Position numbers and translations under genes: made by a program. From Alphaproteobacteria bacterium (lineage in GTDB: Bacteria; Pseudomonadota; Alphaproteobacteria; MPNO01; UBA830), in assembly GCA_022822405.1 (NCBI GenBank), contig JAJEBT010000212.1, positions 1 through 64,000 of the forward strand: 64,000 nt of DNA. Reading direction: 5' to 3'. The notes under the pieces are model-generated. The model did not search any database and was not told where the DNA came from. It was given only the letters and a program-made list of their open reading frames with translations. Numbering within the stretch: the stretch's first letter is position 1; every line of letters starts with the position of its first letter. This document shows positions 23,621-63,825 of the stretch, one piece after another.

Positions 23621-23716
23621 GATTTGGTTCGCGAGCCCCGATTAGGAGAGTATGGAAGAGTGCCGCCGCCGACGGCGACGTCTATGACTACCAAGGAGTG
23701 CAGTAAGAAAGGCTGG

Positions 23717-24514
23717 TCAAAGTGAACAAATCAGGCATCCGCTCTCGTCCTCATCGACGACTTCGTTCCCGAAGACTTGTGCGAGCGTCAAGTCTTCGCG
23801 GCGTTCGCGTTTGCGGGCCTTGCGCAACTCATACTCCCTCTTGATCGCCTCCATCCGTTCGGGCTGCTCGAGCTCGGTCAGGCTTTCACGTTCGCTCCAA
23901 GTGAAGATGTTGCCGCTTCCTTCATAGGGCCGCTCATAGGCTTTGGCCCGCTCGAACAGGTCAGGATGCTCCTCCTTCAGCCTCACCCATTCGATCTTTT
24001 GCTGGTAAAAGCAAAAGAAGCAACCTGATCTCGTGCGGCCCCATTTCGTGTAGGGTGGCAAGCCGACTCCCGAGTCGAGGAGAATTTCTCGAATGTCGGC
24101 AAGTTTCAGCCCATCGTTCTGGAACGGGTAGACGGCGGTGATGTTCGGCTTGTGGCTGATGTAGCCGGCGCGCTTCTCATCGGCCCGGAGGCCCACATAG
24201 TTGATGACCGGATCCTCTCCGACGAAATCCTCGAAGGGTTTGAGCTTGAGCATCTTGGTGCACCAGCGGCGATGATTCGACGGTATCATACCGCCATAGA
24301 CATCGTACCAGTGATCGAAGCCAAGTTCGGCGTTGAGCCGGTGGACGCGCTTGCCGAGGTAGTCTTCGATGCGCTCAAGGTATTCATAAGTCTCCGGCAA
24401 CTCCTTGCGCGTGTCCGAGAAGATATACTCCATTTCGGTCACGCGATCCCGCATATAGATCGCGAGGGCGGCAGAGTCCTTGCCGCCGGACAGGCTGAGG
24501 ATGTGACGGGTCAC
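23717..24514 (-). CDS. sspD: DNA phosphorothioation protein SspD (PAPS reductase-like ATP pyrophosphatase)
   Basis: 265 residues. The PP-loop SGGKDS is at residues 9-14. Cysteines expected for Fe-S or sulfur transfer are in CTKMLK, SGCFFCFYQQ and the C-terminal SGCLICSL. It activates DNA backbone phosphate with ATP and, with sulfur from SspA, is thought to insert sulfur into DNA. ATGA overlap with sspC shows translational coupling. Related to DndC, but context places it in the Ssp rather than the Dnd family. Confidence 0.87.
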   Translation of the reverse strand: MTRHILSLSGGKDSAALAIYMRDRVTEMEYIFSDTRKELPETYEYLERIEDYLGKRVHRLNAELGFDHWYDVYGGMIPSNHRRWCTKMLKLKPFEDFVGEDPVINYVGLRADEKRAGYISHKPNITAVYPFQNDGLKLADIREILLDSGVGLPPYTKWGRTRSGCFFCFYQQKIEWVRLKEEHPDLFERAKAYERPYEGSGNIFTWSERESLTELEQPERMEAIKREYELRKARKRERREDLTLAQVFGNEVVDEDESGCLICSL

Positions 24515-27500: not shown

Positions 27501-27873
27501 CAAGCAAGTCTTGGGCAAGGCTGGCGCGGCGCCCGACCAACACCGCTGGACGGTACGCCGGCACCGTTTGCTCGCCGTGCGCTTGCTGCAACAGGTCTTG
27601 GGCAGGGCCGTTCCCGGGCTCTTCGCTGAACAAGCGCGCCAGTAACAGCCCGAAGGAGGATTTTCCTGATCCGTAGGGTCCGGTCACGCGGAACGCGCGT
27701 TGTGAAGATCCTGGCTCCAAGCCTGCGAGCAACCGGCGAAGACCGTCTCGCGCCGATGGCGTCATCACATAGCCTTCGAGCGCCTGTGGGTCGTGAAGGT
27801 CGCGAGAAATGTCAACCGCGCGCGCATAGCGGCGTCGTATGGCGATACGGTCGGCAATCAATTGCATTGCCAT
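24511..27873 (-). CDS. sspC: DNA phosphorothioation ATPase SspC
   Basis: 1120 residues. The N-terminal ATPase domain has Walker A GPYGSGKSSF (residues 65-74) and Walker B LLLIDEMGRYLEF. The long C-terminal region is helical with no named domain. In the Ssp system SspC provides ATPase activity for modification. It could be taken for a BREX BrxC-like ATPase by itself, but its place between a DUF4007 protein and a PAPS reductase fixes it as SspC. The start overlaps sspB by 16 bp; a second Met lies at 27867. Confidence 0.83.
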   Translation of the reverse strand: MAMQLIADRIAIRRRYARAVDISRDLHDPQALEGYVMTPSARDGLRRLLAGLEPGSSQRAFRVTGPYGSGKSSFGLLLARLFSEEPGNGPAQDLLQQAHGEQTVPAYRPAVLVGRRASLAQDLLVLVGDVARAEFGADDELATAAEKTGTESAFTQGDVKPVLDCLAACAEKLRARKGCGLLLLIDEMGRYLEFAATNPAREDPSLFQQLAERAGGAKNEGLAVVGFLHHRFNDYAAALGGWFEGEWARSSERYEEITFHETCEQSLHLVGQALAPRRVHSQRVRTELQTLYREAGQRGLFTLSSDDLLATARQLYPLHPGAFACLISSSRRFGQNERSIFSFLQSSEPAGYQYFAHQTAYGPSNWYRVDDLFDYLASQGSFRFQSRDRERRWQLAQDAVLVCADMPVIAQRVLKAVSLLATLEPVPGLAADAQALAWLLGCEEGDAAGALAELGERGVIHRRAAQGDWSLWSHSSVDLEHWFEEAKVALPEARRLENDLAELPPVRPIVAQRHYHRTGTLRSFAVSIGNEPPDAYCETDGLILVRPVYPDEDQAAVKLEAAQLSERRGPLSLVRLQPVSLSDLALAQDLIRWKWVQTNCRELRIDDLARAEVERRVRYLENELRNRLAPFAQVDTGAAAAHWFHEGKEADIASRAALNRFLSEICDGVFTDAPVLRNELINRDRLSTAVAAARMRLLELMLTKEECDCLELNGAPPERTIYLSMFQASGMHRKEAGQIRFASPPSDDPMGWSPAWACIDDLVSGGNGVSFDDIIAELGAAPIGLRAGPALLLIAAYMLRHRATIALMERGSFQPEITPAHFMRLAKSPKNFALRQMSPTGGDATLRSLAQGLSIWADEPPAAEFKPIVEALYRWWGQLSDYARSTRTIDATAQKVRTVLSKAVEPIELVFDQLPRACGTWSADGIDVERYAVVLDSALTQIDDALPALRSQATAHARSAFGTRSLKHLRQQVRFDYESHLLELGSYELRAFVGRALNDELSDSTWLDSIAGLVVGKRLDSWDDASLDQFGFEIRGMAQKLARHLAMIRENQARAAPLTAIHVTRSDGTDRSLFVRDGADTDKALAERVRKLLADARRPDALLVELLAELMTDEEPENVK

Positions 27874-28796
27874 GCGAACTCTTTGAGTCTTTCTCTCGCT
27901 TCCGGCGCACCGCAGACCAAGTCGATGCCGCCAACTCCATCGCTACGTAACTGCAGGCCGGCAACTCTGGAGATATCCTCAAGGCAGGCGTGCAGCGCTG
28001 GTTCATCCAAGCAAAAGATGACACCTGGCGAGCGTCTGTCAAGGAGCAGGCTCCGCAGTGACAGCGAGCGGCTACCGGGCGCGGTGCCCTGCCAGTAATC
28101 GTAGAGTGCGAAAGCAAAGGCTTCGGTGTCGAGCTGAAGTTTTGCGCCGCGCTTCAACGTCACATAGGTTTCTCCATTGACGAGCGATGTCTCGAGCAGG
28201 TGAAGCTCCCGAAAGGGACAGCCGGAAATATCCTCGCCCGGGGTCGCCTGATCGAAGTGTGTCCAGTCATAGGTCCGCAGGAGCATGTCCACATGAGCCT
28301 TTGCCGTTCCAAGCGCGATCGATTTCTTGGCGGCCCTCGCGCGGCTGCGGACCAGGTCAATCAGGCGTTCGCGCGCGATCTGCGTGTCCTGCAGTTCGAG
28401 AAATGTGGCGACCCATGCGCCCAGGCCCGCGTGGGCTGTGACAACCCAGTGCAGGCGCCATAGCGATCCCATTTCCTCAAGATAGGGATCGCGCCCTGTT
28501 TCGGGATCGAGCATACGCTGTGCGAACCCGGTATTACGGGCTGTGCCGCGCGTAACTTCAAGGAGGCCGAATGCTTGCCCCCAGAACCGGAGCGCTTTCA
28601 CCATGTTCTTGCCGAGCCCGAGCCCCATGATCGCGCGTTCGTCGTCAGAGAAGAGTTCAGGATCGTCGGCGACCGCCTCATAGAGCTTCGGCAGCCAGCC
28701 ATAGCGGCAGGGGAAGGATTCATGCCCGGAATAGATTCGTGCATGCCCCTCCTCCTGTGTCCAGCGATGACCGGTGTCTCCCGTTGCGGTCCGCAT
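27858..28796 (-). CDS. sspB: DNA phosphorothioation protein SspB (DUF4007 family nickase)
   Basis: 312 residues. The DUF4007 signature is visible as SGHESFPCRYGWLPKLYEA near the N-terminus and IMGLGLGKNMVKALRFWGQAFGL. Published work assigns SspB the DNA nicking step that exposes the site for sulfur insertion on one strand. It begins 6 bp after sspA ends. Confidence 0.85.
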   Translation of the reverse strand: MRTATGDTGHRWTQEEGHARIYSGHESFPCRYGWLPKLYEAVADDPELFSDDERAIMGLGLGKNMVKALRFWGQAFGLLEVTRGTARNTGFAQRMLDPETGRDPYLEEMGSLWRLHWVVTAHAGLGAWVATFLELQDTQIARERLIDLVRSRARAAKKSIALGTAKAHVDMLLRTYDWTHFDQATPGEDISGCPFRELHLLETSLVNGETYVTLKRGAKLQLDTEAFAFALYDYWQGTAPGSRSLSLRSLLLDRRSPGVIFCLDEPALHACLEDISRVAGLQLRSDGVGGIDLVCGAPEARERLKEFAWQCN

Positions 28797-28802
28797 CTTC
28801 GT

Positions 28803-29930
28803 TTAGCCTCCCTTCAAGCACCGGATTGCGGCAGATATCTGCGCCGCCGCTTCGCGGGCGTCCTCCTGTCTTGTGTCCCGACCGAAGCCGATTCGAATTG
28901 CGCCGCGAACGCGATCGTCTTCCAAGCCCATTGCGACTAGAACAGGGGACGGCCCGATAGAGCCCGATGAGCAGGCTGAACCGGTGGCAAGCGCGAGGTC
29001 TGGTAGAAAGGCGAGGAGGGCATCGGCCTCCACGCCGTCGAAGCTCACGTTGAGGTTCTGGGCAACACGCTCTTCCAATGTTCCGTTGATCGCGTAGGAA
29101 ACCCCGGAACGGTCGAGCTCCTCAAGAAACAAATTCGCTAGGGCGGCCGCATGGGCCTGGTCCGCTTCGCGTTCATGCGCAGCCAAGGCACAGGCTTCAC
29201 CGAAGCCGACGCAGAGCGCCGTCGGGAGTGTGCCGGGTCTGAGGCTCTCCTGCTGACCGCCACCGGTCATCAGCGGTCGGAGGAGAGGAAGTCCATCAGG
29301 ATGGGCGCAGATAGCGCCGACACCTGGCGGGCCGTAGATCTTGTGCGAGGAGAGCGTGACAAACGTAAAGCCCGCGTTCATGTCGACTGATACCCGGCCC
29401 AGCGCTTGAGCGGCGTCCGTATGAAAAGGAACTCCCTCGGCGGTGCACAGTGCGGCGATTTCTTCAACGGGTTGGATAGTGCCAATTTCGTTGTTGACGG
29501 TCATGACCGAGACCAGATCGGCACCCGCAATCAGGTCCGCCAAGGCTTCCAGATCGACAATACCGTCCTCCCCCGCCGGGGCCGTTGCGCAATCAGCACC
29601 GCCTCGGGCGCAATCTGCCGCGGTGTCGGCGACGCAGGGATGCTCGATAGCGCTGATCAGAAGCCGTTTGCCGCCAGCAGCGAAACTGCGCAGCACGATG
29701 TTGGCAGCTTCGGTCGCGCTTGCCGTAAATATCACGCCGTCTGGGTCGCCATTGACCGCGCCGGCCACCTGAACTCGCGCATGTTCGATCGCGGCAGCCG
29801 CGTCGCGACCGAAACCATGTTCGCTTGAATGTGGGTTCGCAGGTCGGCTTAGCCACGGCAACATGACTTCAAGGACCCGCCGGTCAAGCGGTGTCGTTGC
29901 CTGATGGTCCAGATAGATGCTTGCGCTCAT
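28803..29930 (-). CDS. sspA: Cysteine desulfurase SspA
   Basis: 375 residues from ATG 29930. A NifS/IscS-type PLP enzyme: K197 in SSHKIYGPPGVG is the expected PLP lysine, C320 in TGSACSSG the persulfide cysteine, and H97 in SAIEHPCV stacks on the cofactor. It supplies sulfur from L-cysteine to SspD. First gene of the sspABCD-FGH operon; the promoter should lie to the right of 29930. An in-frame TTG at 29939 is a less likely start. Confidence 0.9.
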   Translation of the reverse strand: MSASIYLDHQATTPLDRRVLEVMLPWLSRPANPHSSEHGFGRDAAAAIEHARVQVAGAVNGDPDGVIFTASATEAANIVLRSFAAGGKRLLISAIEHPCVADTAADCARGGADCATAPAGEDGIVDLEALADLIAGADLVSVMTVNNEIGTIQPVEEIAALCTAEGVPFHTDAAQALGRVSVDMNAGFTFVTLSSHKIYGPPGVGAICAHPDGLPLLRPLMTGGGQQESLRPGTLPTALCVGFGEACALAAHEREADQAHAAALANLFLEELDRSGVSYAINGTLEERVAQNLNVSFDGVEADALLAFLPDLALATGSACSSGSIGPSPVLVAMGLEDDRVRGAIRIGFGRDTRQEDAREAAAQISAAIRCLKGG

Positions 29931-30069
29931 GATCCGCAACGCTGGCCCGCCGCGCGAAAACTCTCAGGTAAAGACAGCGGAAGGCCCTCAGAGATTGTTC
30001 CGCAATAATGGCCCCGTGATCTGGCGCTTAGCAGGCATTGCAGAACTCCTCAAGCAGAGGCAGTTGTGC

Positions 30070-31085: not shown

Positions 31086-32588
31086 CTATCCGAACAGGGT
31101 TTCTGCGTTCGCTTTCCAGAGCCCAACGTCCCCCGGCCTCTCGGAATACGAGCTCGTCTCCCTCCGGTACCCCTCGTCTCGTTGCCCACGATAGGACAGC
31201 CAGTTGAAGCTCCCCCAGACGCAGAACCTTTCGTCGCAGATCATAAACTTCTCATGCGTCTCGATTCGCTTGACGATTAACCGGCACCTATGGGCCTTCG
31301 GGATCTTGTGCCTCAAATCTGCCAGCGCCTTGTCGCCCTTTACTCTGTTGCGATCTCTTTCGCCCCGCGTTCCGAATCCCCAGGCGATCCGGACCGTCAC
31401 TCCTCTATCGATGGCGGCGGTCAGCGCCTCGCAGAGCTCCTCGTCTAGCGTTCGCGAGTTGACCCATGCAGAGACGATCGTTAGCTCCGAGACTGCGGTC
31501 CGCACTGCGTCGAACAGCAACGGCCGATGTTCTTCCGTCCTTACCAGACGTGCCTCCCCGCCGCTCAAGTCCTCGAGCTGCCGTTCCTTCTCCCGCAGTT
31601 TCGCCCGAAGTTCGTCCCGCTCAGCCTTTGACTCCTTCAAGTCCTCTTCCAGCGTCGCCCGTTCCCGTTCGTCCTGCGTTGCACTCCGGATGGACTCCGT
31701 GTCCGCCACGGCCATCTCGGCCTTCCCGAGCGCCTCGTCCAATTTCCCTATGTCTTGCGCGAGGCGGCTTTCCTCTGGCCGCAACCGCGCCCACGGCGCC
31801 GCCGATCCGTTCTCAGGCCCAACATCCTGCGGGACCAACTTGAACCCGGAAGCCGCCAGGCGCTGAATGGCTTCCGATTCCTGCTCAAGAAACTGCTGCG
31901 CGCGATAAGCCACAAACAGTTCGCTCCGCGACTGGCGGTGCAGCAGCCTAACCAGGATCACATCCCTGCGATACCGAAGCCGCGCGTCCTTGATGTCTAC
32001 GACCTGTAGTATCTCGGCCTTCTGCCCGGCTTTACCAAACTGCTCCTCGTACTCCTGAACCTCGGCCAGCCGAATCTGGCTCAGCCGCGGCCTCCTGGAT
32101 TTTGTCGCCGGAATAAAAAGCCCTTCCTTGCGGGCTTCCTCCCGGTCCAGGAGATCATCCAAGTCCACAGTTGGGATCGTCCGCACAAGCGGATCATATG
32201 GTATTCGGGGGTGTCGGTTTCTGGGGCGGTAGGTCCGACCAGCCTCCCTCAGGACCGCCCGCCCGAGTTCCGTAATCCGGATGCTCTGATCCGGCTTTTG
32301 CTCGATCAGCGCTGCCGAAAGTAATTCTGCAGCCGCCAAGACCACCTCGCCCTCGCGCAGCCCCAGTAACCTGCGGATCTCGGCAACGTCTTCGACCGGC
32401 ACGTTCGCCAGCATGAGGACGAATCGAGCGGTTGTAGACAGCTTGCCTGTTTCGTGTTCCACGATCCGTATGCGCAAGTCGTAGACGGGCAGACACACCG
32501 GGTAGGCCAAGTCGACATCGTAGTCCCGAAACCTCCGCTTCGCTCGCGCGCGAACCGCGGACAGGCCATCAGTTGGCGGGTTCGTCAC
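31086..32588 (-). CDS. mkoB: Mokosh type I protein MkoB, PLD-family nuclease
   Basis: 500 residues from GTG 32588, which overlaps the mkoA stop (GTGA). An N-terminal winged-helix-like region is followed by a long coiled coil (about residues 275-350, EERATLEEDLKESKAERDEL) and a C-terminal phospholipase D-type domain with a single H445-x-K447 and G459-S-x-N462. One HKD half-site implies that two chains form the active site. In type I Mokosh the PLD nuclease is encoded beside the kinase-helicase. Its 3' end abuts an IS66 remnant but the PLD domain looks intact. Confidence 0.82.
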   Translation of the reverse strand: MTNPPTDGLSAVRARAKRRFRDYDVDLAYPVCLPVYDLRIRIVEHETGKLSTTARFVLMLANVPVEDVAEIRRLLGLREGEVVLAAAELLSAALIEQKPDQSIRITELGRAVLREAGRTYRPRNRHPRIPYDPLVRTIPTVDLDDLLDREEARKEGLFIPATKSRRPRLSQIRLAEVQEYEEQFGKAGQKAEILQVVDIKDARLRYRRDVILVRLLHRQSRSELFVAYRAQQFLEQESEAIQRLAASGFKLVPQDVGPENGSAAPWARLRPEESRLAQDIGKLDEALGKAEMAVADTESIRSATQDERERATLEEDLKESKAERDELRAKLREKERQLEDLSGGEARLVRTEEHRPLLFDAVRTAVSELTIVSAWVNSRTLDEELCEALTAAIDRGVTVRIAWGFGTRGERDRNRVKGDKALADLRHKIPKAHRCRLIVKRIETHEKFMICDERFCVWGSFNWLSYRGQRDEGYRRETSSYSERPGDVGLWKANAETLFG

Positions 32589-35500
32589 GGTCGCGCCTCC
32601 ACGATCCGGCATTCCTCCGGATTGGACCGCATGTGCGCCAGCACGTCGGCGAACGGGTTCGACGCGGTGCCGAGGGCCGCGTTCTCCATCATGAAGTCGT
32701 CGCCCACGATTACGAGAAGGTCCCGGGCCCTCGACAGCGCGACATTGAGTCTGCGGTGGTCCCGCAGGAAGCCAATGCGGCGAGACGGATTCGACCGAAC
32801 CGTTGAGTAAATCACCACGTCGCATTCACGTCCTTGGAACGAATCGACGGTTGCGATCTCGATCGTCATCCGGGGCCAACGCCGCGAATCCCCGGTGTCT
32901 ATCGCGCCGCGCAAGCGGCCTACCTGACCTGAGTACCCTGTGATTACTCCGACCTTCAGTAACCCTCTCCATCCGCCGTCGTTGCGGATGCGGTCGAGAA
33001 CTGCCGTCACAACTCCAGCTTCCGCTGGATTCTCGTACGAGTCCCCGCTACGTGATTCACCCCTGTCCTGCAGCCTCGAAGTCGAAATCCAGTTGACAAT
33101 GGCGCCAAACGAGTCGGCGAACTTGCGCCGTCGTGCTGGTTCACCATTGACAAGGGTTCCGTCATAGAACACTTCGCTGATGAGGTTCCCGATGGCGGGG
33201 TGCATGCGATACTGTGTTACCAGCCTCGCCGCGTAGTCTGGGTCCTCCTCATGTTCCAGAAGATCCTGAAATAGGCTCGTCTCCAGAGCCACCGACCTGT
33301 CATCCGTTTGCACCCGTCCAACGCTTTCGTCGACCATCGGCGGCAACTGCCGCTCGTCGCCGACAAGTATCACTCTCTGTGCCATGCCAATAGGGATCAG
33401 CACCTCGGGAACCGTCGCTCGGCCCGCTTCGTCGACGATGACCCACTCGAAGCTCGCACCGTCCGTAGCGAACCGCGGATTGACCTTTGCACTGATACTG
33501 CATGTCGCCGCTACCACCCGGGCCGTCTTGCTGACCAAGTCCTCGAAGTCCTTGCTGCGCCCCACTACATTGGTCCAGTGCCTAAGAATTCGCCGTTTCT
33601 CTTGGATACCGGCCAACTCGGCCGCCTCCGGCGCTTCCGACTTAGAATGTTCGTCCAGTGACGCCGCAGCCACCATGATAGACCCCAGCGCGTCCTGTTC
33701 CGTAGTTCCAGCGAACTCCACGGGCTGCGGCAGCAGTTCGTTCAGCGCCTCAATATGATTCCAAAACTCTGCCTTCGCCTCGTCCACCAGTTGTTCCACA
33801 TCGGCCCGATTCCCAGTCGCCGTGTCCTTACCGAGTTGCGCGCGCTCCTCCTCGTACTCGTTGAGTTGCTCAGCGATATCGCTCGCCTCCGCGATCCACT
33901 GCTCCAGATTGCCGGCCGAGTCCTCGCTCATGATTTCCGCCCGAGTCGCCTCCTTCACGGCTCGGCGCGCTTCCCGCTCCGCCCTCCGCAACTCCTCATC
34001 GACCGGACTGCAACGCCCAAGCACCTCTTCCCGCCAGGCCTGCGTCCTCTCCGCGACCGTCCATTGTTGGCCGCCATGACCGATTCTGTCCGGCCGGCCG
34101 ATCCGTACCATCTCGGGGGGCGACTGGCCCTCGGCGTCAGCGATCCGCGTCAATGCATGATCGACTGCTACGTTTGACTGCGAACTCAACAGAATTCGCG
34201 ACTCCGGGTGTCGCTTGAGGATTTGCAGGACTATCTCCGCAATCACGGACGTTTTCCCAGTCCCCGGCGGTCCCTGAATCAGGAAAAGATCGTTCGTCGA
34301 CACCGCCCGGCGAACCACTTCGCGCTTATCCTCCGACAGCCACTCTTGGAAGAAATCCAATTCGCGCTTCGTCATCTGGGTACAGGCGCTCGGGTCCAAG
34401 ATGACGCCCGCCACCGCAGGGTTCGCCATCTGGTCGAACAGGAACGCGTCCACCGCGCGCTGACGTCGCCGAATCTCAGTGAGCGCTTCCGTTATGTTAA
34501 CCGTCACGTACCCGCTCGCGGGGATCGGCACTTCCTCTCGCTGAAACCGATACCGGTTTCGTGCCACACGCACGTTGCGCCCCTGCACGTCGACCAGATT
34601 TCCGACCGGCACCAATGGCGACTCCCGACTCACCCTGGCAGCAAGCGGCGTGTCATCTTCCCAATCCAGATCGTCCGGTGCCATCTGCGCCAGTTCGAAG
34701 CGGACATACTCCCGATCCACATGAGCTTGACTGTACACGAGTGTCCGCCCCTGCTTCTCGATCTTCGACCTGCTCTCCCGCAAGACCCTTTGCCAATCCT
34801 CAACGTAGTCCCGCCTGCTCCTCCTGCCCTTCTGCGCAGCTGCCTCCACGGCCTCAAACGTGCTGAGCTCGGCCAACAGCGCCTGAATATCCTCGCGCCT
34901 TCCCGGCACCGCTCCTCCGGCGCGAGCCTCTCCCACCACCCACAGCGCGCGACTGCTCAGCGCACGTTGCTTATCCCGCTGCAAGTAGGGGTCGTACGGT
35001 GTTTGCACAGTCTTGCACACCAGTGCGTCCCCGGCGGCGGCTACCGCACAAATCACCCGTATCGAGTCTCCGAGTACGAGAACTTCGCGCTCGCCGTCCC
35101 TAATCCGACTCACCAGGAATACTTCCTCTGCCTCTACACCGCCCAACTCCTCCTGCAGGAACCGCTCCGCCTCCTCAAGGTCTTCGTCGCCGATGTGTCC
35201 GTCCCGGTACAAATCGGTCAATGCGTTCCGAGTTAGCAACAGCGGGTAGGTCGGCAACGGCTCGTTCCGCCGCCCCGCATCAAGCTGAAGCATCAGCGCG
35301 GCACCTGTGGTCGGGCGCTCGTCTGGGTTCGTGGCGAGCATCCGCTGCAACACGCGCCGAAACGGCTGGCCGACCCTCTCCGCGATCAACGACTGCCCAG
35401 GGCCTTCCGCCGGCGGTGGCTCACCCGTCAACATGTGGAAAAACACCGCCCCGAGAGAATACACGTCGCTCGGAAATGACGCGGGTCCTCCCGAGCGTTG

Positions 35501-36043
35501 TTCCGGTGCGGCGTAGCCTCCACTCCAATACCCCGCCAGCGTCTCTCCCACCGTCAGGTTCGCGACCAGCTTGCTGATGCCGAAGTCGGTCAGCAGTGCC
35601 TGGCCCGCGGCATCCACCAGTATGTTCGACGGTTTGATGTCTCGGTGTATCACGCCCTCGGAATGCGCGTGTGCCAGCGCCTCGGCCAGTTGGCGCATGA
35701 CCTGATACGAGTCCACCGCGGCCGTACCCAACTCTCCCCGCAGCACCTGTTCGAGCGAGTGGGGGTAGTAGTCTAAGACAACGTAAAATGCGGCTTCGTC
35801 CGCCCACCAGCCCCGATCCCTCATGCCGACGACGTTGCGGTGCCGCAGCTTTTGGAGCGCAGTCGTTTCGCGCTTGAAGAGTTCACGTTTGATCGCGTCG
35901 CCGTGCGCCGTGTTCAACACCTTCACGGCTACGCGCAAACCGCCGTTCGCCGTGTCTTCCGCCAAGAACACAGTGCTCATTCGTCCGTTGCCGACCTCCT
36001 CCAGCAACACGAACCGATCTTCGATCACGCGAGACCCCAGCAT
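32585..36043 (-). CDS. mkoA: Mokosh type I protein MkoA, Ser/Thr kinase fused to SF1 helicase
   Basis: 1152 residues from ATG 36043, preceded by TTGGAG at 8-base spacing. Residues 1-260 are a Hanks-type kinase: glycine loop EVGNGRMSTV, K41 in VAVKVL, H133-R-D135-I-K-P-S-N, D153-F-G. Residues 580-1150 are an Upf1/COG1112-like helicase: Walker A GPPGTGKTS (591-599), DEAGRA, QYRMHP, VDSFQGRE and NVALSRAR. This kinase-helicase fusion next to a PLD gene is the published layout of type I Mokosh antiphage systems. All core motifs are intact. The operon is GC-rich, unlike the reverse-transcriptase operon at 56.5 kb. Confidence 0.87.
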   Translation of the reverse strand: MLGSRVIEDRFVLLEEVGNGRMSTVFLAEDTANGGLRVAVKVLNTAHGDAIKRELFKRETTALQKLRHRNVVGMRDRGWWADEAAFYVVLDYYPHSLEQVLRGELGTAAVDSYQVMRQLAEALAHAHSEGVIHRDIKPSNILVDAAGQALLTDFGISKLVANLTVGETLAGYWSGGYAAPEQRSGGPASFPSDVYSLGAVFFHMLTGEPPPAEGPGQSLIAERVGQPFRRVLQRMLATNPDERPTTGAALMLQLDAGRRNEPLPTYPLLLTRNALTDLYRDGHIGDEDLEEAERFLQEELGGVEAEEVFLVSRIRDGEREVLVLGDSIRVICAVAAAGDALVCKTVQTPYDPYLQRDKQRALSSRALWVVGEARAGGAVPGRREDIQALLAELSTFEAVEAAAQKGRRSRRDYVEDWQRVLRESRSKIEKQGRTLVYSQAHVDREYVRFELAQMAPDDLDWEDDTPLAARVSRESPLVPVGNLVDVQGRNVRVARNRYRFQREEVPIPASGYVTVNITEALTEIRRRQRAVDAFLFDQMANPAVAGVILDPSACTQMTKRELDFFQEWLSEDKREVVRRAVSTNDLFLIQGPPGTGKTSVIAEIVLQILKRHPESRILLSSQSNVAVDHALTRIADAEGQSPPEMVRIGRPDRIGHGGQQWTVAERTQAWREEVLGRCSPVDEELRRAEREARRAVKEATRAEIMSEDSAGNLEQWIAEASDIAEQLNEYEEERAQLGKDTATGNRADVEQLVDEAKAEFWNHIEALNELLPQPVEFAGTTEQDALGSIMVAAASLDEHSKSEAPEAAELAGIQEKRRILRHWTNVVGRSKDFEDLVSKTARVVAATCSISAKVNPRFATDGASFEWVIVDEAGRATVPEVLIPIGMAQRVILVGDERQLPPMVDESVGRVQTDDRSVALETSLFQDLLEHEEDPDYAARLVTQYRMHPAIGNLISEVFYDGTLVNGEPARRRKFADSFGAIVNWISTSRLQDRGESRSGDSYENPAEAGVVTAVLDRIRNDGGWRGLLKVGVITGYSGQVGRLRGAIDTGDSRRWPRMTIEIATVDSFQGRECDVVIYSTVRSNPSRRIGFLRDHRRLNVALSRARDLLVIVGDDFMMENAALGTASNPFADVLAHMRSNPEECRIVEARP

Positions 36044-36272
36044 CTGTTTCTCCAAGTTTGATCGCGACTGCGCCGATCCCATTCTAGGTGGTCTGGGCCT
36101 AATTCCGACCGTCCATTGTCCCTCGCTACGTCCTCTGTCATTTGGCGTAACGCTTTGGCGCCTCAGAATCCCGCCAGTTTCAATAACCCGTCGCGCTGAT
36201 CGGCGTTGAAACCAGGCGCCGAACCACATTCCTTTGGATTTCAGAAGTTCACGACCGCGCGCATAACAACAG

Positions 36273-56472: not shown

Positions 56473-57531
56473 ATGGGCTTTCGAGAAGACACGGCAGAAC
56501 TCAATCGGATGACGATCCAAGCGGTAGGGAGTCTACTGGGTCTACGGCTACCTCTAAGTGGGATGATCCGCTGTCCGTTCCCGGATCACAATGATAGCAC
56601 CCCATCATTCCAAGTCAGAAAATCGGAGAACCAGTGGATATGCTACGGTTGCCAGCGACGCGGCGGATCCATCGACTTCGTCAAGATATATCACGGTATA
56701 GATTTCTTGGAGGCTAAACGATGGCTCGCTGCTCGCGCGGGAATGAGTACGACCTCCCAGCGGTCGACAAGCAGCCATACCAAAGTTGGATCGATGGCTG
56801 CCTCGTCTCCGCCAGCAATGAATGATGCTGTTGAGCCTCCACCGGACAGCGAGCTGTACGAAGCACTGCTTCAGCACACGCCGTTGAAGTCAACTGGATT
56901 GCAATACTTGCTCAAGCGAGGCCTTTCAAAGGAAACCATTTTGGACTTTCGTATTGGACAGTTGTCGGACTCTGCGAACTTGATAAAAAAAATGATATCA
57001 AATTATGGTTATCAAAGAGTTAAGGCAGCGGGGTTGCTCACTACTAGGTCAAATAATAGGAATTGGAAATTGATTTTTCTTCCACATAGCATAATATTCC
57101 CTTATATTGAAAATGGTTCCATTGTGTACTTGCAAGCTCGGCAGCTAATTGATTCTCCAACCCAAGGGAAGTGGCGGAACCTCAACCACCGAAAGCATCG
57201 CATCTATAATTTTGACGCCATTTTCAAGAGTAAGCGTACGCCCTTCGCCATATGCGAGGGTACCGTGGATACGCTATCAGCTATTGAGCTTGGGTATGAC
57301 GCTATCGGCTTAATCGGCGTCAACATGCAGTTGAAGAGAGAGTACTTGCAACGATTGCGTGGCAAGCAGGTCGTTATCCTCTTGGATTGGGACTCGGCTG
57401 GGGAAAAGCGCGCTGCTGAACTTCAGCGTGAATTACGCAGTTTTGGTATAGCGTCGACCCGCAAGAGATGTCCTTCGCCTGGAGTCAAAGACGTCAATGA
57501 ATATCTGATGATGGCGAGGGCTCAAGCATGA
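56473..57531 (+). CDS. CHC2/Toprim DNA primase-like protein
   Basis: 352 residues. N-terminal CHC2 zinc ribbon with C34-H39 and C57-C60 (CPFPDHNDSTPSF then CYGCQRRGGS), a Ser/Thr linker, and a Toprim domain with E262 in ICEGTVDTLSA and the metal-binding DWD (305-307) in ILLDWDSAGE. It is shorter than DnaG and lacks the helicase-binding C-terminal domain, as in phage and plasmid primases. It overlaps the reverse transcriptase start by 4 bp (ATGA), so the two are made together. Probably primes or binds nucleic acid for the RT module (inference). Confidence 0.86.
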   Translation: MGFREDTAELNRMTIQAVGSLLGLRLPLSGMIRCPFPDHNDSTPSFQVRKSENQWICYGCQRRGGSIDFVKIYHGIDFLEAKRWLAARAGMSTTSQRSTSSHTKVGSMAASSPPAMNDAVEPPPDSELYEALLQHTPLKSTGLQYLLKRGLSKETILDFRIGQLSDSANLIKKMISNYGYQRVKAAGLLTTRSNNRNWKLIFLPHSIIFPYIENGSIVYLQARQLIDSPTQGKWRNLNHRKHRIYNFDAIFKSKRTPFAICEGTVDTLSAIELGYDAIGLIGVNMQLKREYLQRLRGKQVVILLDWDSAGEKRAAELQRELRSFGIASTRKRCPSPGVKDVNEYLMMARAQA

Positions 57532-60500
57532 TGGCCTACGACCGTCTTTTGCTCCCAGAGAACCTCAACTACGCTTGGAACAAAGCCAAGAGACTCTATT
57601 CCATGCTTGACGGTTATGTTGACAACAGCGAACTTGCAGAATTTGAACTTAATTTAGAGGAGCGGCTAACCCGAATTCAAAGGCAGTTTAAAAAGTGCGT
57701 CTGGCGTCCCAAAAGATTGCGTCCTCTACCACGTCCAAAGAAAGTTGAAAACAACGTTCCTATAGATCGTCAATACTATCATATTGCCGTTGAAGATCAA
57801 GTTGCTTGGATCGCCGTTGCAAATGCACTTGGGCCCGAATTGGATCGACGCATGCCGCCGTGGAGTTACGGCAATCGGATCTATCGTCCGGCTTGGTATG
57901 AGCAGCGCGAAGACCGACTGTCGACCTTGGAAATTGGTCCTTATAGGCATGCCAGTGGCCATCTGTATCGTAAGTTTCAACATAGCTGGCCACTCTTTCG
58001 GAGGCATGTGGCACTAACGGCGCGCGCAATGGCACGGGCCTTGCCTGCTGATCGCGAAGAGCTTGATCATGCAGACCAGTTGGCCACCATTTCTGCTGAA
58101 AGAGAGGGTTTGCGTTACTTGCAGGACAGTTTCTGGTTGCCGAAAAGCCAATCCAGTACCAAGCTCTATCATGCTTCGGTTGACCTGAAGAGCTTTTATC
58201 CGAGCCTTCGAACCGATGCAGTGCTGAAAGGACTCGCCTTATCTGGAAGCCTTGATCAGCGGATGCAAAATTTACTCACACAAATGCTGAGTTTCAGACT
58301 CGATATATCCAATATGCCGACAGATACTCTAAAACAAGTTGAGCCAAAATATGGCCGTGGGCAAGTACAAGGGGTTCCGACGGGGCTTTTCGTAGCTGGC
58401 TTCCTTGCGAATACAGCTATGCTTCCTGTCGACGAAATCGTCAACAGTCGTATTGAAGAGAAGCGCCGTCTTGCGCATTTTCGGTTTGTGGACGATCACA
58501 TAGTTCTTTCTTACGAATTCGATGAGCTTTGCGAGTGGTTAGATTTCTACCAACAATTATTGGGTGAGTGCGATACGGGCGCGTGTGTGAATCCAGAAAA
58601 ATACGATCCCATCAGCCTCGGCGGTTGGATGGACCAACGGTCCAAAAACTTGACGGTAACTAGCGTACCATCGGAGAAAGACGAGGAAGACCGTAATCTA
58701 AAGGAGGTTGTAATCCACGAAACAGAATTTGACGGCGCAAATCCCACCCAACTCCTTACGAAAACACTCGCACAAATTTCCGCGATAGCAGCGGTAAATG
58801 TTGATATTTTGGATGATGAAGATATAGAGGAACGTTTGAAGATTCTTGAATGGTTATTGCTGGCGAATATCCCCGAGCGAGAGATTCGGCCTGATACGCG
58901 CGCTGCATTCGCGGCCGGTCGGATTGCCATTTTGGCCCCTATCCTCGTGCGGGAGACCGATGGCCTTGTGGAGGCCGCGCGATCTCTGGAAACGCTCAAA
59001 GCTCGAGCGCCTAAAGAAAATTCATCCACGCCAGACGAAATCACGGATTACGAAGCCATTCTAGAAGAGAAGAGAAAGCAATTGGCGCTGTTGCAGGCAG
59101 AGCAAGAACAGGAAGAAGAACGCCAGTTGCGCCATTGTTTTAACCTTCTACTTCAATCATTTCGTGAACACCCGGGAAAGCCGCGCCTCTTTTACAGAAT
59201 ACATCAGTATTGTAGGGTCACGGGCTTTAGAGGGTTGAATGACATTGCAAAGTGGATAGAGAATAGTCGTGTCAACGACTATAACATATGGGCTGACTAT
59301 TACGCTGGATTATCGCTTCACATTCTTGCAAGAGGCACCCTCTTGGCTGTCAGGGCGTGCCTCATGGATAATGCACTAAGGTCGGATCAGGAGGCAGCGC
59401 TGCGCTATCTTAAGGATGTGTGCCAAATCGATACCAAGTCATTCATGGTACAGAAGGAGAATGAAGCTTGGTTTCATGCAAATAGTCGAATAGAATTCGG
59501 GGTTGCACTGTTATCGGCTGCAGAAGTCGTCGGTGGTACGATCGCGAATACGAGCCTCGGAGCAGATTTAGCCCGTTTGGCTGGTCACTATATATGCGTT
59601 TCATTTGATGATTCTGCTGAAGCATGGGAGCGTGAGACTGGTAGGCGGCCAGGCATTTGGGCGCATCTGACTGAATCTGTCCTAAGCATCGATGGTTGCC
59701 CGACTGCTTCGTGGAAGCAGTTCGGGACACTCTTTTCTTCTCCTCAAATTGCCGAGGTTCGAGCCGTACGGCGATATCCTGAGTTCCTGTCGGATGCGGA
59801 TTGGTATCAACTGCTGCACTCCAAGAAACCATTACCCGAAACGGATTCCGGCTGGTTGCACGAGGCCATGTCTGGTAACGAAGAGCGGGTGCAAGCTGCT
59901 CTGCTCTCCAAGAAAGTAGCCTTTAAACGTGCCGCCAAATCGCTTAGTCCCCCACTCAATGGATGGGTAACGCTTGCTCAATGGACGCAAATAATTGCCC
60001 AAGAACTTAGTCCGTTCGACCCGCGGCGAAGTGAATGGACCGCACTTGAGGTCGTCCGCCAACTTGTTTCGCCAATTGTCGATGAGATAGACATTGACGA
60101 AACGCGCCTGGACCGTCTCCATCCCAACAATGTTCTAGTACCAGAAGCGTGGAAGACAAAATTTCCTAATGACCGTGATCGGGCTGGAATGAGTTGGGAC
60201 GATTGGCGACGATTCGTAGGCGACCAACAGACCGCGCGAATCGAGTTGCGACGTTCCGCGACTTCGGTAATGGACTACCGATATTTCGCGGAGACTCAAG
60301 GCGGGCCACATTTAAAGGAATGGGACAAACGACTTGTCGGCGTAGGGCGTTTGCTCCTAGGCCAGCTGCGACTCAAACATGAAGCGCCAAGGATATGGAA
60401 CATTCGAGGTAATGAACAGATTTTTCCTTTACCACGGACGGATTGGTTCCGGTCTCTTTCAATCTCGTCGCCTACGCTTCTGCTTGTTGAAGGCTGCCTT

Positions 60501-60773
60501 GGTGCTCGCAGTACGGAGACACGATCTATTGCTCGCAATCCGGAATTCTTCGGTTGGATCGATGGCCAAGAGCCTAATGACGCTGACTTCGATCCGCCTT
60601 TGTTGTTCGGGCCTAATGAGCTTCTGACCGCTATAACGAGTGCCCAAAGGGTCCTTATTGAGAACCAATTGGCTGTAGCGATGAACCAGCCACGCCAAAT
60701 AGTCCCTTTTCGGCTGAGTGACTTTGCCACAGGTCCAACAAACGACGAAGAGGCGAACAACGATGGTGAGTGA
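57528..60773 (+). CDS. Large defence-type reverse transcriptase (UG/DRT class)
   Basis: 1081 residues. The RT palm is in residues 60-330: PIDRQYYHIAVEDQVAW and SYGNR, motif A VDLKSFYPSLR (D219), motif B QGVPTGLFVA (281-290), and the catalytic box RFVDDH (D322, D323) where most RTs have YxDD. A long insertion (about 120-210) precedes motif A. The C-terminal 700 residues are helical with a coiled coil near 560-590, as in abortive-infection and UG RTs. No maturase, HNH or CRISPR domain is present. Starts at ATG 57528 or 57531 inside the primase stop. Confidence 0.88.
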   Translation: MMAYDRLLLPENLNYAWNKAKRLYSMLDGYVDNSELAEFELNLEERLTRIQRQFKKCVWRPKRLRPLPRPKKVENNVPIDRQYYHIAVEDQVAWIAVANALGPELDRRMPPWSYGNRIYRPAWYEQREDRLSTLEIGPYRHASGHLYRKFQHSWPLFRRHVALTARAMARALPADREELDHADQLATISAEREGLRYLQDSFWLPKSQSSTKLYHASVDLKSFYPSLRTDAVLKGLALSGSLDQRMQNLLTQMLSFRLDISNMPTDTLKQVEPKYGRGQVQGVPTGLFVAGFLANTAMLPVDEIVNSRIEEKRRLAHFRFVDDHIVLSYEFDELCEWLDFYQQLLGECDTGACVNPEKYDPISLGGWMDQRSKNLTVTSVPSEKDEEDRNLKEVVIHETEFDGANPTQLLTKTLAQISAIAAVNVDILDDEDIEERLKILEWLLLANIPEREIRPDTRAAFAAGRIAILAPILVRETDGLVEAARSLETLKARAPKENSSTPDEITDYEAILEEKRKQLALLQAEQEQEEERQLRHCFNLLLQSFREHPGKPRLFYRIHQYCRVTGFRGLNDIAKWIENSRVNDYNIWADYYAGLSLHILARGTLLAVRACLMDNALRSDQEAALRYLKDVCQIDTKSFMVQKENEAWFHANSRIEFGVALLSAAEVVGGTIANTSLGADLARLAGHYICVSFDDSAEAWERETGRRPGIWAHLTESVLSIDGCPTASWKQFGTLFSSPQIAEVRAVRRYPEFLSDADWYQLLHSKKPLPETDSGWLHEAMSGNEERVQAALLSKKVAFKRAAKSLSPPLNGWVTLAQWTQIIAQELSPFDPRRSEWTALEVVRQLVSPIVDEIDIDETRLDRLHPNNVLVPEAWKTKFPNDRDRAGMSWDDWRRFVGDQQTARIELRRSATSVMDYRYFAETQGGPHLKEWDKRLVGVGRLLLGQLRLKHEAPRIWNIRGNEQIFPLPRTDWFRSLSISSPTLLLVEGCLGARSTETRSIARNPEFFGWIDGQEPNDADFDPPLLFGPNELLTAITSAQRVLIENQLAVAMNQPRQIVPFRLSDFATGPTNDEEANNDGE

Positions 60774-61671
60774 CAGTCTGCGAGTAGGTGTTATTCAGAC
60801 ATCGCTTCACGACGAAGCGGCATGGGTTGACGACATGTCGGGCGATTGGAAACGCTGCGTACAGATGTCTTCCCACGAGGAGCGGCGAGCGAAGAAGGAA
60901 ATTCGGCACTATCTTGCATCGTTAAAGGGCATGGAACGCCGGCCCGATATCGTGCTCTTTCCTGAGCTATCCGTACCAATCGGTTTCCAACCTCAACTCA
61001 AGGGGGCAGCGGAAAAACTGGAAGCTATAATCATAGCAGGCCTTGACTATCGTATAAAACCCGACCAGTTGGGGCCAGCAGTATCGAACGAAGCTATCGT
61101 GATTGTTCCTAGGAAATTAAGGGGGCAGATTATCGCTCTTCGCACCGAGATTCGACGCGTAGGCAAGACCTATCCGGCACCTGGAGAGAAAAGAAGACTT
61201 CTCGAAATAACTGGCTCAAGCGTAGAATTTGTATCAGATCCCACTGTCTGGATATTTGAAAGCGTAGATTATGGGAAATTCGCTGTCGCAGTGTGCTACG
61301 ACTTTATGGATCTGGATCGGATTGTCATGTATAGAAACAAGATACAGACGCTATTTGTTCTCTCCTATAACAAAGATACAACGTCCTTCAACCATCTATC
61401 TGAGGCGCTTGGCCGGATGTTATTTTGTAATGTAGTGGTATGTAATTGCGGTAAATTTGGAGGTTCTCATGCAGTCAGCCCTTTTCGGGAACCCTACAGG
61501 CGTACGATCTATCGACACTCGGGCCAAAATCTGCCCAATGCACAGCTCATAGAACTACCACTCAAGAATCTCGTCTCGCATCAGGAGGGCAATCAAGACC
61601 AAGAGTTCAAGAGCTTGCCGCCCGGCTTCTCCGATCACATTGTGATGAACTTACGAAACGCGACAGTTTAA
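60763..61671 (+). CDS. Stand-alone nitrilase/carbon-nitrogen hydrolase of the RT operon
   Basis: 302 residues from ATG 60763, overlapping the RT stop by 11 bp. The catalytic triad of the superfamily is E68 (LFPELS), K135 (RVGKTYP) and C178 (VAVCYDFMD), all intact. In known RT-nitrilase defence systems (DRT type 1/UG1) this domain is fused to the RT; here it is a separate polypeptide. Its substrate is unknown; in defence it may act as an amidase on a nucleotide or cofactor (inference). Confidence 0.85.
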   Translation: MVSDSLRVGVIQTSLHDEAAWVDDMSGDWKRCVQMSSHEERRAKKEIRHYLASLKGMERRPDIVLFPELSVPIGFQPQLKGAAEKLEAIIIAGLDYRIKPDQLGPAVSNEAIVIVPRKLRGQIIALRTEIRRVGKTYPAPGEKRRLLEITGSSVEFVSDPTVWIFESVDYGKFAVAVCYDFMDLDRIVMYRNKIQTLFVLSYNKDTTSFNHLSEALGRMLFCNVVVCNCGKFGGSHAVSPFREPYRRTIYRHSGQNLPNAQLIELPLKNLVSHQEGNQDQEFKSLPPGFSDHIVMNLRNATV

Positions 61672-62937: not shown

Positions 62938-63825
62938 ATGTGGCCAAACATTCCCGAAGACGTTATCGACTATGTTCGAATGATCGTGCGTCAAGCATCC
63001 GAGGAAACTACTGAACGCTTATCCAACCAACCAAACTCTCGTGAGACAGCGCTGGATGATACGCTCGTAAATGCTGTTGCCAGATTCGCCGCTCCTACGC
63101 GCCTTTCATCCGACACGATCGTAACGATTGACGTCCACAATATAGGGGGGCTCCGCCAATGGGGGAGGTGGGAGCTTGCCGACATCGCCTTTCTCGTTCA
63201 CGTATCTACTAGCGGAAAGCCGGTGGTCCAGAAAATCGGACTTCTACAATCTAAGCGGCTATACCCGGAGAACCTTGATGTTGACGCTGATGACCCCGTC
63301 GCTTTTGGATATGGCTTGAACGGCCTGATAGATCCTCCGGAAACCGCGACGCCGACCTTTCGGAGGACGACTTACAAATTCTCTGAGCAATCTGTCTACG
63401 GTGCTATTGACCCCCATGATGAACAGTTGGGGCGTATTGGAGAATTTCAAAAGCAATTTGGAGAATCGGTTTTCTATCTCCTCTATCACCCACCGGAACT
63501 TCCTTTTGAACGCACCTTACCGGCGGTCACCTATCATTCGGTCCGACTTCCTCCCTTGGGACCGCGGGTAGTACGATCCGCCGCCGTAGGAAATGTTCTC
63601 GATAATCCTTCGAGACCTAAACGTAGTCCCAGCTTTCGGGAAATTCAGTTGTCGGCAACTTCTGACAATTGGCGTCTTGAAACCTGGACAGCGGATTTTC
63701 TATTGCGATGCAAAGTGGGGAGGCAATACACAAAGGAAGACCAAGAGCTGATAACCCAACTAATCGAACGTCGGACGGGCCCAATCGGCGCTGCTATTCG
63801 TATCAACGTCGCCCTTTCCGATTGA
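62938..63825 (+). CDS. Putative PD-(D/E)XK nuclease-like protein
   Basis: 295 residues. The segment WELADIAFLVHVSTSGKP then IGLLQSKRLYPE has the D...QxK arrangement of PD-(D/E)XK nucleases of the Mrr/restriction type, in which Q-x-K replaces E-x-K. The rest (a long beta-rich region and FREIQLSA) is unassigned. It stands alone, with AT-rich composition like the RT operon. A restriction-like defence role is an inference. Confidence 0.5.
   Translation: MWPNIPEDVIDYVRMIVRQASEETTERLSNQPNSRETALDDTLVNAVARFAAPTRLSSDTIVTIDVHNIGGLRQWGRWELADIAFLVHVSTSGKPVVQKIGLLQSKRLYPENLDVDADDPVAFGYGLNGLIDPPETATPTFRRTTYKFSEQSVYGAIDPHDEQLGRIGEFQKQFGESVFYLLYHPPELPFERTLPAVTYHSVRLPPLGPRVVRSAAVGNVLDNPSRPKRSPSFREIQLSATSDNWRLETWTADFLLRCKVGRQYTKEDQELITQLIERRTGPIGAAIRINVALSD

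What the first reader, a model, noticed from the sequence alone, without database searches (positions are those of the whole stretch)
56473..61671. Three-gene primase - reverse transcriptase - free nitrilase operon, possibly a new class of RT defence system
The sequence directly shows CHC2/Toprim primase-like, large UG-type RT (FVDD box) and nitrilase genes, with 4- and 11-bp overlaps at the two junctions. Established knowledge: RT-nitrilase fusions (DRT type 1/UG1) protect against phage. Here the nitrilase is a separate protein and a primase is added. I do not know a described system with this exact set, so it may be an unclassified relative. Inference: the primase makes or binds an RNA or DNA primer for the RT, and the nitrilase acts downstream as an effector.
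Basis: partly seen in the sequence, partly recalled or inferred. Interest (0 to 1): 0.88.

Follow-up and report, generated by a model that had tools for sequence, protein, structure and literature searches.

The report
Primase–reverse transcriptase–nitrilase defence operon (UG6)
This is an intact bacterial operon of a primase, a reverse transcriptase and a nitrilase, a gene set already catalogued as the "UG6" class of probable anti-phage systems but never mechanistically studied; relatives keep the trio together, often add a DNA-trimming exonuclease, and share a switch-like nitrilase tail with the known DRT1 defence system.

Summary
In detail: three ORFs at 56473-61671, with 4-bp and 11-bp overlaps, encode a DnaG-type primase, a 1081-aa RT and a free nitrilase. 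The novelty claim does not hold. PADLOC-DB (2023) already has models for all three: RTasDnaG-like (1.7e-112), RT_UG6 (E=0) and RTasNitrilase (1.4e-118). UG6 carries no DRT number there, and I found no mechanistic paper. I recovered 20 relatives. All keep RT+nitrilase in this order, and 19/20 keep the primase; the exception has a deleted one. Catalytic residues of all three enzymes are invariant and dN/dS is 0.03-0.16.

New here: (i) the nitrilase is closest to DRT1's nitrilase domain and ends in K-x-x-P-x-G in 21/21, aligned with DRT1 lid residues known to be essential; (ii) 14/20 relatives carry an active-looking 3'-5' exonuclease (DEDDh or SbcB-like) beside the operon, though the window does not; (iii) DRT1's priming serine is not conserved; (iv) no conserved ncRNA. 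The window is a defence island (Ssp, Mokosh, UG6, NACHT).

Best reading: a split, multi-subunit relative of DRT1, where RT-made DNA controls a nitrilase death effector. The primase (primer supply) and exonuclease (trimming) roles are inferred. Known kind, uncharacterised, testable.

The parts
56473..57531 (+). DnaG-type primase (CHC2 zinc finger, DNAG_N core, Toprim; no helicase-binding domain); PADLOC RTasDnaG-like
56572..56652 (+). CHC2 zinc finger of the primase (C34, H39, C57, C60)
   Evidence: H39/C57/C60 20/20, C34 18/20 (the two others have a C one residue downstream)
57250..57507 (+). Toprim domain with invariant E262, D266, D305, D307, D340
   Evidence: Pfam Toprim_2; invariance
57528..60773 (+). 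UG6 reverse transcriptase: N-terminal RT (about 1-450) + alpha-helical repeat region (about 480-1060)
   Evidence: RT_UG6 E=0, 1171 bits; model pLDDT 82.3, pTM 0.85; hhalign to DRT1 prob 99.7, E=1.7e-25 over residues 4-469
58182..58184 (+). RT catalytic D219 (motif SVDLKSFYPS)
   Evidence: invariant 20/20
58491..58496 (+). RT catalytic D322-D323 (FRFVDDH)
   Evidence: invariant 20/20
58758..58781 (+). T411/T413/S418: invariant hydroxyl residues just downstream of the position aligned with DRT1 priming S402; candidate priming region
60763..61671 (+). Stand-alone nitrilase (carbon-nitrogen hydrolase); PADLOC RTasNitrilase
60964..60966 (+). nitrilase catalytic E68
   Evidence: invariant 21/21
61165..61188 (+). 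nitrilase K135 and E142
   Evidence: invariant 21/21
61294..61296 (+). nitrilase nucleophile C178, aligned with DRT1 C1116
   Evidence: invariant 21/21; alignment
61609..61626 (+). C-terminal lid motif K283-S-L-P286-P-G288, aligned with DRT1 K1219/P1222/A1223/G1224
   Evidence: DRT1 mutants K1219A and A1223F in PMC13275509

Best explanation
A UG6-class defence operon, best understood as a split, multi-subunit relative of DRT1. Proposed working: the RT subunit (RT plus helical repeat) makes non-genomic DNA without an ncRNA template. That DNA, bound to or carried by the complex, holds the separate nitrilase subunits in an assembled but closed state through their C-terminal K-x-x-P-x-G lid. Phage replication disturbs the DNA (in DRT1 a phage helicase is needed), the lid opens, and the nitrilase destroys or converts an essential small molecule so the infected cell stops growing before phage is released. 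The DnaG-type primase most likely supplies or primes the 5' end of the RT product, in place of or beside DRT1's priming serine. In most relatives a dedicated 3'-5' exonuclease trims the product. Shown here: gene set, conservation, active sites, kinship to DRT1, lid motif, exonuclease linkage, no conserved ncRNA. Inferred: all activities, the assembly, the trigger, the primase and exonuclease roles.
For: Class: RT_UG6, RTasDnaG-like, RTasNitrilase. Conserved cassette: RT+nitrilase 20/20, primase 19/20, coupled junctions. Purifying selection: dN/dS 0.03-0.16 for all genes in three close relatives. Kinship to DRT1: hhalign E=1.7e-25 for the RT; the nitrilase profile hits only DRT1 in the PDB (2.6e-25). 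Lid: K-x-x-P-x-G in 28 of 30 class tails, 0.64 expected by shuffling, aligned with DRT1 residues whose mutation abolishes defence (PMC13275509). Priming: no conserved hydroxyl at the position aligned with DRT1 S402 while primase metal and zinc residues are invariant. Exonuclease: 14/20 loci; DRT1 adducts are 17-30 nt natively and after exonuclease I (PMC13275509), and DRT4 DNA is kept in check by exonuclease until a phage protein protects it (PMC13213688). No ncRNA: flanks not conserved, no room upstream in L002/L011/L021, no Rfam hit. Island: Ssp, Mokosh, NACHT.
Against: No phage-protection data for UG6 found. In DRT1 the nitrilase is covalently part of the RT protein, and the assumed RT-nitrilase contact here is untested. 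L003 has lost the primase yet keeps intact-looking RT and nitrilase, so the primase may be dispensable. S402 is also not conserved in other class 3 DRTs, and DRT5 is still protein-primed (PMC13275509), so its absence does not prove RNA priming. The window itself has no linked exonuclease.
Confidence: 0.55

Rival explanations
1. The RT is protein-primed exactly like DRT1/DRT5, using a different residue (e.g. T411, T413 or S418), and the primase does something else: second-strand synthesis on the RT product, or a decoy/sensor of phage replication proteins.
For: DRT1, DRT5S and DRT5L all synthesise DNA protein-primed and template-free (PMC13275509); S402 is not conserved in other class 3 DRTs either; invariant T411/T413/S418 lie next to the aligned priming site; a primase-less relative persists (L003).
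Against: The primase is kept in 19/20 with all metal and zinc residues and dN/dS 0.13-0.14, so it has a catalytic job closely tied to the RT.
Confidence: 0.3
2. The Toprim/primase protein is the toxic effector (nicking DNA or making toxic RNA) and the nitrilase is a regulator.
For: Toprim domains serve as effectors in retron-Eco2 RT-Toprim (noted in PMC13275509 and the abstract of PMC12405507).
Against: The protein carries the full CHC2 zinc finger and DNAG_N primase core and is not an OLD-type nuclease; the nitrilase is the most constrained gene of the operon (dN/dS 0.03-0.05) and in DRT1 it is the required effector.
Confidence: 0.08
3. Not defence: a domesticated or mobile-element replication module.
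For: Integrases and IS66/IS91 transposases near several relatives; the primase resembles replication primases.
Against: All three proteins match defence-library RT-associated families; the window lies among Ssp, Mokosh and NACHT genes; the nitrilase is DRT1-like; no match in 50,697 phage or 72,556 plasmid records with the RT.
Confidence: 0.07

Closest known systems
UG6 class of UG/Abi reverse transcriptases (PADLOC RT_UG6 + RTasDnaG-like + RTasNitrilase)
   Same: All three proteins match their PADLOC models with E<1e-110; a published UG6 RT in Cohnella has a nitrilase neighbour (PMC8934634; the genus is from my own knowledge of the record).
   Different: Nothing basic: this is a member. The RTasSbcB partner seen in some relatives is absent here.
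DRT1 (UG1, RT-nitrilase fusion; PDB 9yfd)
   Same: RT N-terminal half homologous (hhalign E=1.7e-25), nitrilase homologous (2.6e-25), same catalytic Cys, same C-terminal K-x-x-P-x-G lid, helical repeat region after the RT, no ncRNA.
   Different: Nitrilase is a separate protein; a DnaG-type primase is added; priming S402 not conserved; PTG instead of PQG in the RT motif; no drt1b.
UG5-nitrilase (DRT5S/L in PMC13275509)
   Same: Nitrilase with the same tail motif (L027, L029); class 3.
   Different: Fused; no primase.
DRT7 (UG10, RT with primase-polymerase)
   Same: An RT coupled to a priming enzyme.
   Different: DRT7 uses a fused AEP-type primase-polymerase (PMC8934634, PMC13213688); UG6 uses a separate DnaG/Toprim primase and adds a nitrilase.
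UG29 (PADLOC RT_UG29)
   Same: Its 2280-position profile contains the same DnaG-like primase (2.2e-21).
   Different: Primase apparently fused; the window RT (25 best hits listed) and nitrilase do not match it.
DRT4 (UG15)
   Same: Balance between RT-made DNA and exonuclease degradation (PMC13213688) parallels the exonuclease-linked UG6 relatives.
   Different: Single gene, no nitrilase or primase; the exonuclease is not part of the locus.

Membership tests
UG6 RT class | RT matches the RT_UG6 profile over its length and better than any other UG class | tested here: met
   E=0, 1171.5 bits, profile 2-921/925; next best Drt1a 2.3e-15
UG6 RT class | accompanied by DnaG-like and nitrilase partners | tested here: met
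   present in the window; 19/20 and 20/20 relatives
UG6 RT class | shown to protect against phage | not testable with these tools
   no paper found
Class 3 DRT / DRT1 | RT and nitrilase in one polypeptide | tested here: not met
   separate ORFs with 11-bp overlap
Class 3 DRT / DRT1 | nitrilase catalytic residues incl. nucleophilic Cys | tested here: met
   E68, K135, E142, C178 invariant 21/21; C178 aligns with DRT1 C1116
Class 3 DRT / DRT1 | C-terminal lid residues (K1219, A1223 region) | tested here: met
   K283-x-x-P286-x-G288 aligned; position 287 is P or A
Class 3 DRT / DRT1 | priming serine S402 | tested here: not met
   aligned positions 402-406 lack a conserved hydroxyl
Class 3 DRT / DRT1 | RT falls in the class 3 clade | tested here: inconclusive
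   closest other PADLOC model is Drt1a and hhalign to DRT1 is strong, but the 28-row tree leaves the join open
Class 2 DRT / retron | conserved ncRNA next to the RT | tested here: not met
   no Rfam hit, no conserved or unusually folded flank, <40 bp upstream room in three relatives
DRT7 / UG10 | AEP-type primase-polymerase fused to the RT | tested here: not met
   separate DnaG/Toprim primase; UG10 model not among the 25 best RT hits listed

The most novel reading that the evidence does not exclude
UG6 is a primase-primed, exonuclease-gated defence RT: a dedicated DnaG-type primase starts a non-genomic strand that the RT extends, replacing the protein priming of other class 3 DRTs. A 3'-5' exonuclease (linked or host) sets its length, and the strand gates a free DRT1-type nitrilase. 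That would be the first DRT known to use a cellular-type (Toprim) primase, and a four-enzyme 'make, trim, sense, kill' circuit.
Probability: 0.25. Interest if true: 0.75.

Novelty: new member of a known kind. Interest (0 to 1): 0.46.

Why it matters
Class 3 defence RTs are the least understood DRTs, and the nitrilase substrate is unknown. A naturally split system, with priming enzyme, polymerase, effector and (in relatives) trimming nuclease as separate proteins, lets each step be removed or swapped singly, which the DRT1 fusion does not. The shared lid motif gives an immediate test of whether the DRT1 switch is general, and the recurrent exonuclease predicts that product trimming is part of the mechanism.

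Tried and rejected
Single-protein scans of genome contigs and viral contigs with the RT found nothing, because automatically chosen 8-mers were not conserved. I then steered the patterns with alignments whose other rows were X except at guessed RT motifs (A1-A3); the hits were confirmed by tblastn and by full-length comparison. So the 20 relatives are those sharing an exact 8-mer (SWPLFRRH or DLKSFYPS); more distant UG6 (e.g. the published nitrilase-linked BBI33370.1) are not sampled. Surveys of 398 phylum, 27 order and 385 class genomes found UG6 only in the window's genome: it is rare. Phages, plasmids and IMG/VR gave no UG6. ncRNA: rejected. Foldseek vs PDB (entries to April 2026) gave generic RTs and generic nitrilases/amidases; DRT1 9yfd did not appear among the listed hits, so the DRT1 comparison rests on sequence and profiles. 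The tree with DRT1/UG5/UG17 is long-branched and does not settle class membership. The key classification paper (Mestre et al. 2022, doi 10.1093/nar/gkac467) is not held.
Full report
**Observation.** The window holds three same-strand ORFs: 56473-57531 (352 aa), 57528-60773 (1081 aa) and 60763-61671 (302 aa), overlapping by 4 and 11 bp. Pfam gives CHC2 zinc finger, DNAG_N and Toprim for the first, RVT_1 for the second, and only a sub-threshold CN_hydrolase match for the third. No helicase-binding domain follows the Toprim domain.

**Classification.** PADLOC-DB assigns all three proteins to defence-RT families: RTasDnaG-like (1.7e-112), RT_UG6 (E=0, 920 of 925 positions) and RTasNitrilase (1.4e-118). 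UG6 keeps its UG name there while Drt1, Drt2, Drt3, Drt6, Drt8 and Drt9 have been renamed, which suggests that UG6 had not been validated experimentally. Literature searches found UG6 only in a classification paper, which lists a UG6 RT (BBI33370.1) beside a nitrilase (PMC8934634). The 2022 UG/Abi survey that founded the classes is not held, so what it says about UG6 is not verified here.

**Relatives.** A steered scan of GTDB contigs returned 20 UG6 relatives, L002-L021. Most are Alphaproteobacteria; L008 (Leucothrix), L019 (Candidimonas) and L020 (a deltaproteobacterial MAG) are not. Every one has the nitrilase directly downstream of the RT, and 19 have the primase directly upstream. Junctions are coupled almost everywhere, typically 4, 8 or 11 bp of overlap. 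L003 (Mesorhizobium tianshanense) has lost the primase: only about 27 residues of its Toprim end remain in front of the RT. L016 has a frame break in the RT. In three close relatives dN/dS is 0.03-0.05 for the nitrilase, 0.07-0.11 for the RT, 0.13-0.14 for the primase and 0.12-0.16 for the exonuclease.

**Active sites.** Invariant or nearly so: primase H39, C57, C60 (C34 18/20), E262, D266, D305, D307, D340, R223 (R149 18/20); RT D219, D322, D323, with PTG in place of the usual PQG; nitrilase E68, K135, E142, C178. All three enzymes look active.

**Kinship to DRT1.** A profile of the 21 nitrilases finds one PDB sequence at E<0.001: DRT1, at 2.6e-25. hhalign of 20 UG6 RTs against four plasmid-borne DRT1 proteins gives probability 99.7, E=1.7e-25, over UG6 residues 4-469. 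The RT model (pLDDT 82, pTM 0.85) has an RT fold followed by a long helical region; DRT1 is described as RT, helical repeat and nitrilase (PMC13275509). So UG6 looks like DRT1 cut between the repeat region and the nitrilase, with a primase added.

**The lid.** The UG6 nitrilases end in K-x-x-P-x-G (window K283-S-L-P286-P-G288) in 21 of 21. The motif is also in all five DRT1-type tails examined and both UG5 tails: 28 of 30 in all, against 0.64 expected from shuffled tails. It aligns with DRT1 K1219, P1222, A1223 and G1224. In DRT1 residues 1218-1221 close over the neighbouring nitrilase pocket, and K1219A or A1223F cost protection like tail deletions (PMC13275509). The lid thus survives when the nitrilase is a separate protein. 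This is the strongest mechanistic link found.

**Priming.** DRT1 primes DNA on S402 within GTSSIPERN. The aligned UG6 stretch, residues 402-406 (DGANP), has no conserved hydroxyl; T411, T413 and S418 just downstream are invariant. This fits either another priming residue or priming by the primase. S402 is also not conserved in other class 3 DRTs, and DRT5 is still protein-primed (PMC13275509), so the test does not decide.

**A recurrent fourth gene.** Flanking genes were clustered. Nine relatives carry a roughly 300-aa DEDDh 3'-5' exonuclease: L009, L010, L012, L013, L014 downstream (directly abutting or overlapping the nitrilase in four), and L011, L016, L018, L021 upstream. Five carry RTasSbcB, an exonuclease I relative: L003, L004, L007 downstream, L005, L006 upstream. 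Catalytic motifs are kept; the stretch before the first SbcB block reads X in L004. Four loci of other RTs found in the same scan (L022-L025) have none. A DEDDh exonuclease with the same C-terminal domain also follows an unclassified RT-nitrilase fusion on Leptospira plasmids (L030). RTasSbcB is already a PADLOC family, so an RT-SbcB link was known; the DEDDh link I have not seen described. DRT1 adducts are 17-30 nt natively and after exonuclease I, and shorter in vivo than in vitro (PMC13275509). DRT4 DNA is degraded by exonuclease until a phage protein protects its 3' end (PMC13213688). Product trimming is therefore a natural role. The window lacks a linked exonuclease: no RTasSbcB in its genome, only weak unlinked DEDDh matches.

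**No ncRNA.** No Rfam family hits the window. The DNA outside the ORFs is not conserved even with the nearest relatives, flanks fold no better than shuffles, and L002, L011 and L021 have under 40 bp between the preceding gene and the primase.

**Context.** The same window encodes SspA, B, C, D, F, G and H (14984-29939, minus strand) and Mokosh MkoA/MkoB (31086-36229); a NACHT NTPase lies at contig positions 64002-68063. This is a defence island. Integrases and transposases flank several relatives.

**Mechanism, step by step.** Shown: gene set, conservation, intact active sites, kinship, lid motif, exonuclease linkage, absence of an ncRNA. Inferred by homology to DRT1: untemplated DNA synthesis, nitrilase assembly and lid gating, abortive infection. 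Inferred from anatomy only: the primase starting the strand, the exonuclease trimming it. Unknown: nitrilase substrate, phage trigger.

**Verdict.** A real, intact member of a catalogued but uncharacterised class. The novelty claim as stated fails; the mechanistic question is open and the split architecture makes it unusually easy to test.

Noticed in passing
L009-L014, L016, L018, L021 (DEDDh) and L003-L007 (RTasSbcB): A 3'-5' exonuclease sits beside the UG6 operon in 14 of 20 relatives, upstream or downstream, from two subfamilies.
   Followed up: yes
L030:1268-5499 (Leptospira interrogans plasmid): An RT-nitrilase fusion not well matched by any PADLOC RT class, followed 12 bp later by a DEDDh exonuclease of the same subfamily as in UG6 loci; its tail reads KQLPPD instead of K-x-x-P-x-G.
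   Followed up: partly
window 14984-29939 (-): Complete-looking Ssp phosphorothioate defence cluster: SspA, B, C, D, F, G, H.
   Followed up: partly
window 31086-36229 (-): Mokosh-like pair (MkoB 31086-32825, MkoA 32585-36229).
   Followed up: partly
L035:4002-8063 (-), i.e. contig 64002-68063: 1353-aa NACHT NTPase just beyond the window, weakly like PADLOC PDC-M54A.
   Followed up: partly
window 62938-63825 (+): 295-aa ORF between the UG6 operon and the NACHT gene with no Pfam, NCBIfam or PADLOC match.
   Followed up: no
L003:7247-7764: Natural UG6 operon whose primase has been deleted down to a Toprim remnant, next to an SRAP-like (HMCES) gene (SRAP named from its sequence, not tested).
   Followed up: partly
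L028:4966-6843 (Bradyrhizobium plasmid): RT-less 625-aa protein with two nitrilase-like stretches, overlapping a small upstream ORF, in a region with a helicase, dCTP deaminase and HNH endonuclease.
   Followed up: no
PADLOC profile PDLC03767 (RT_UG29): The 2280-position UG29 model carries the same DnaG-like primase, suggesting a fused primase-RT class related in design.
   Followed up: no
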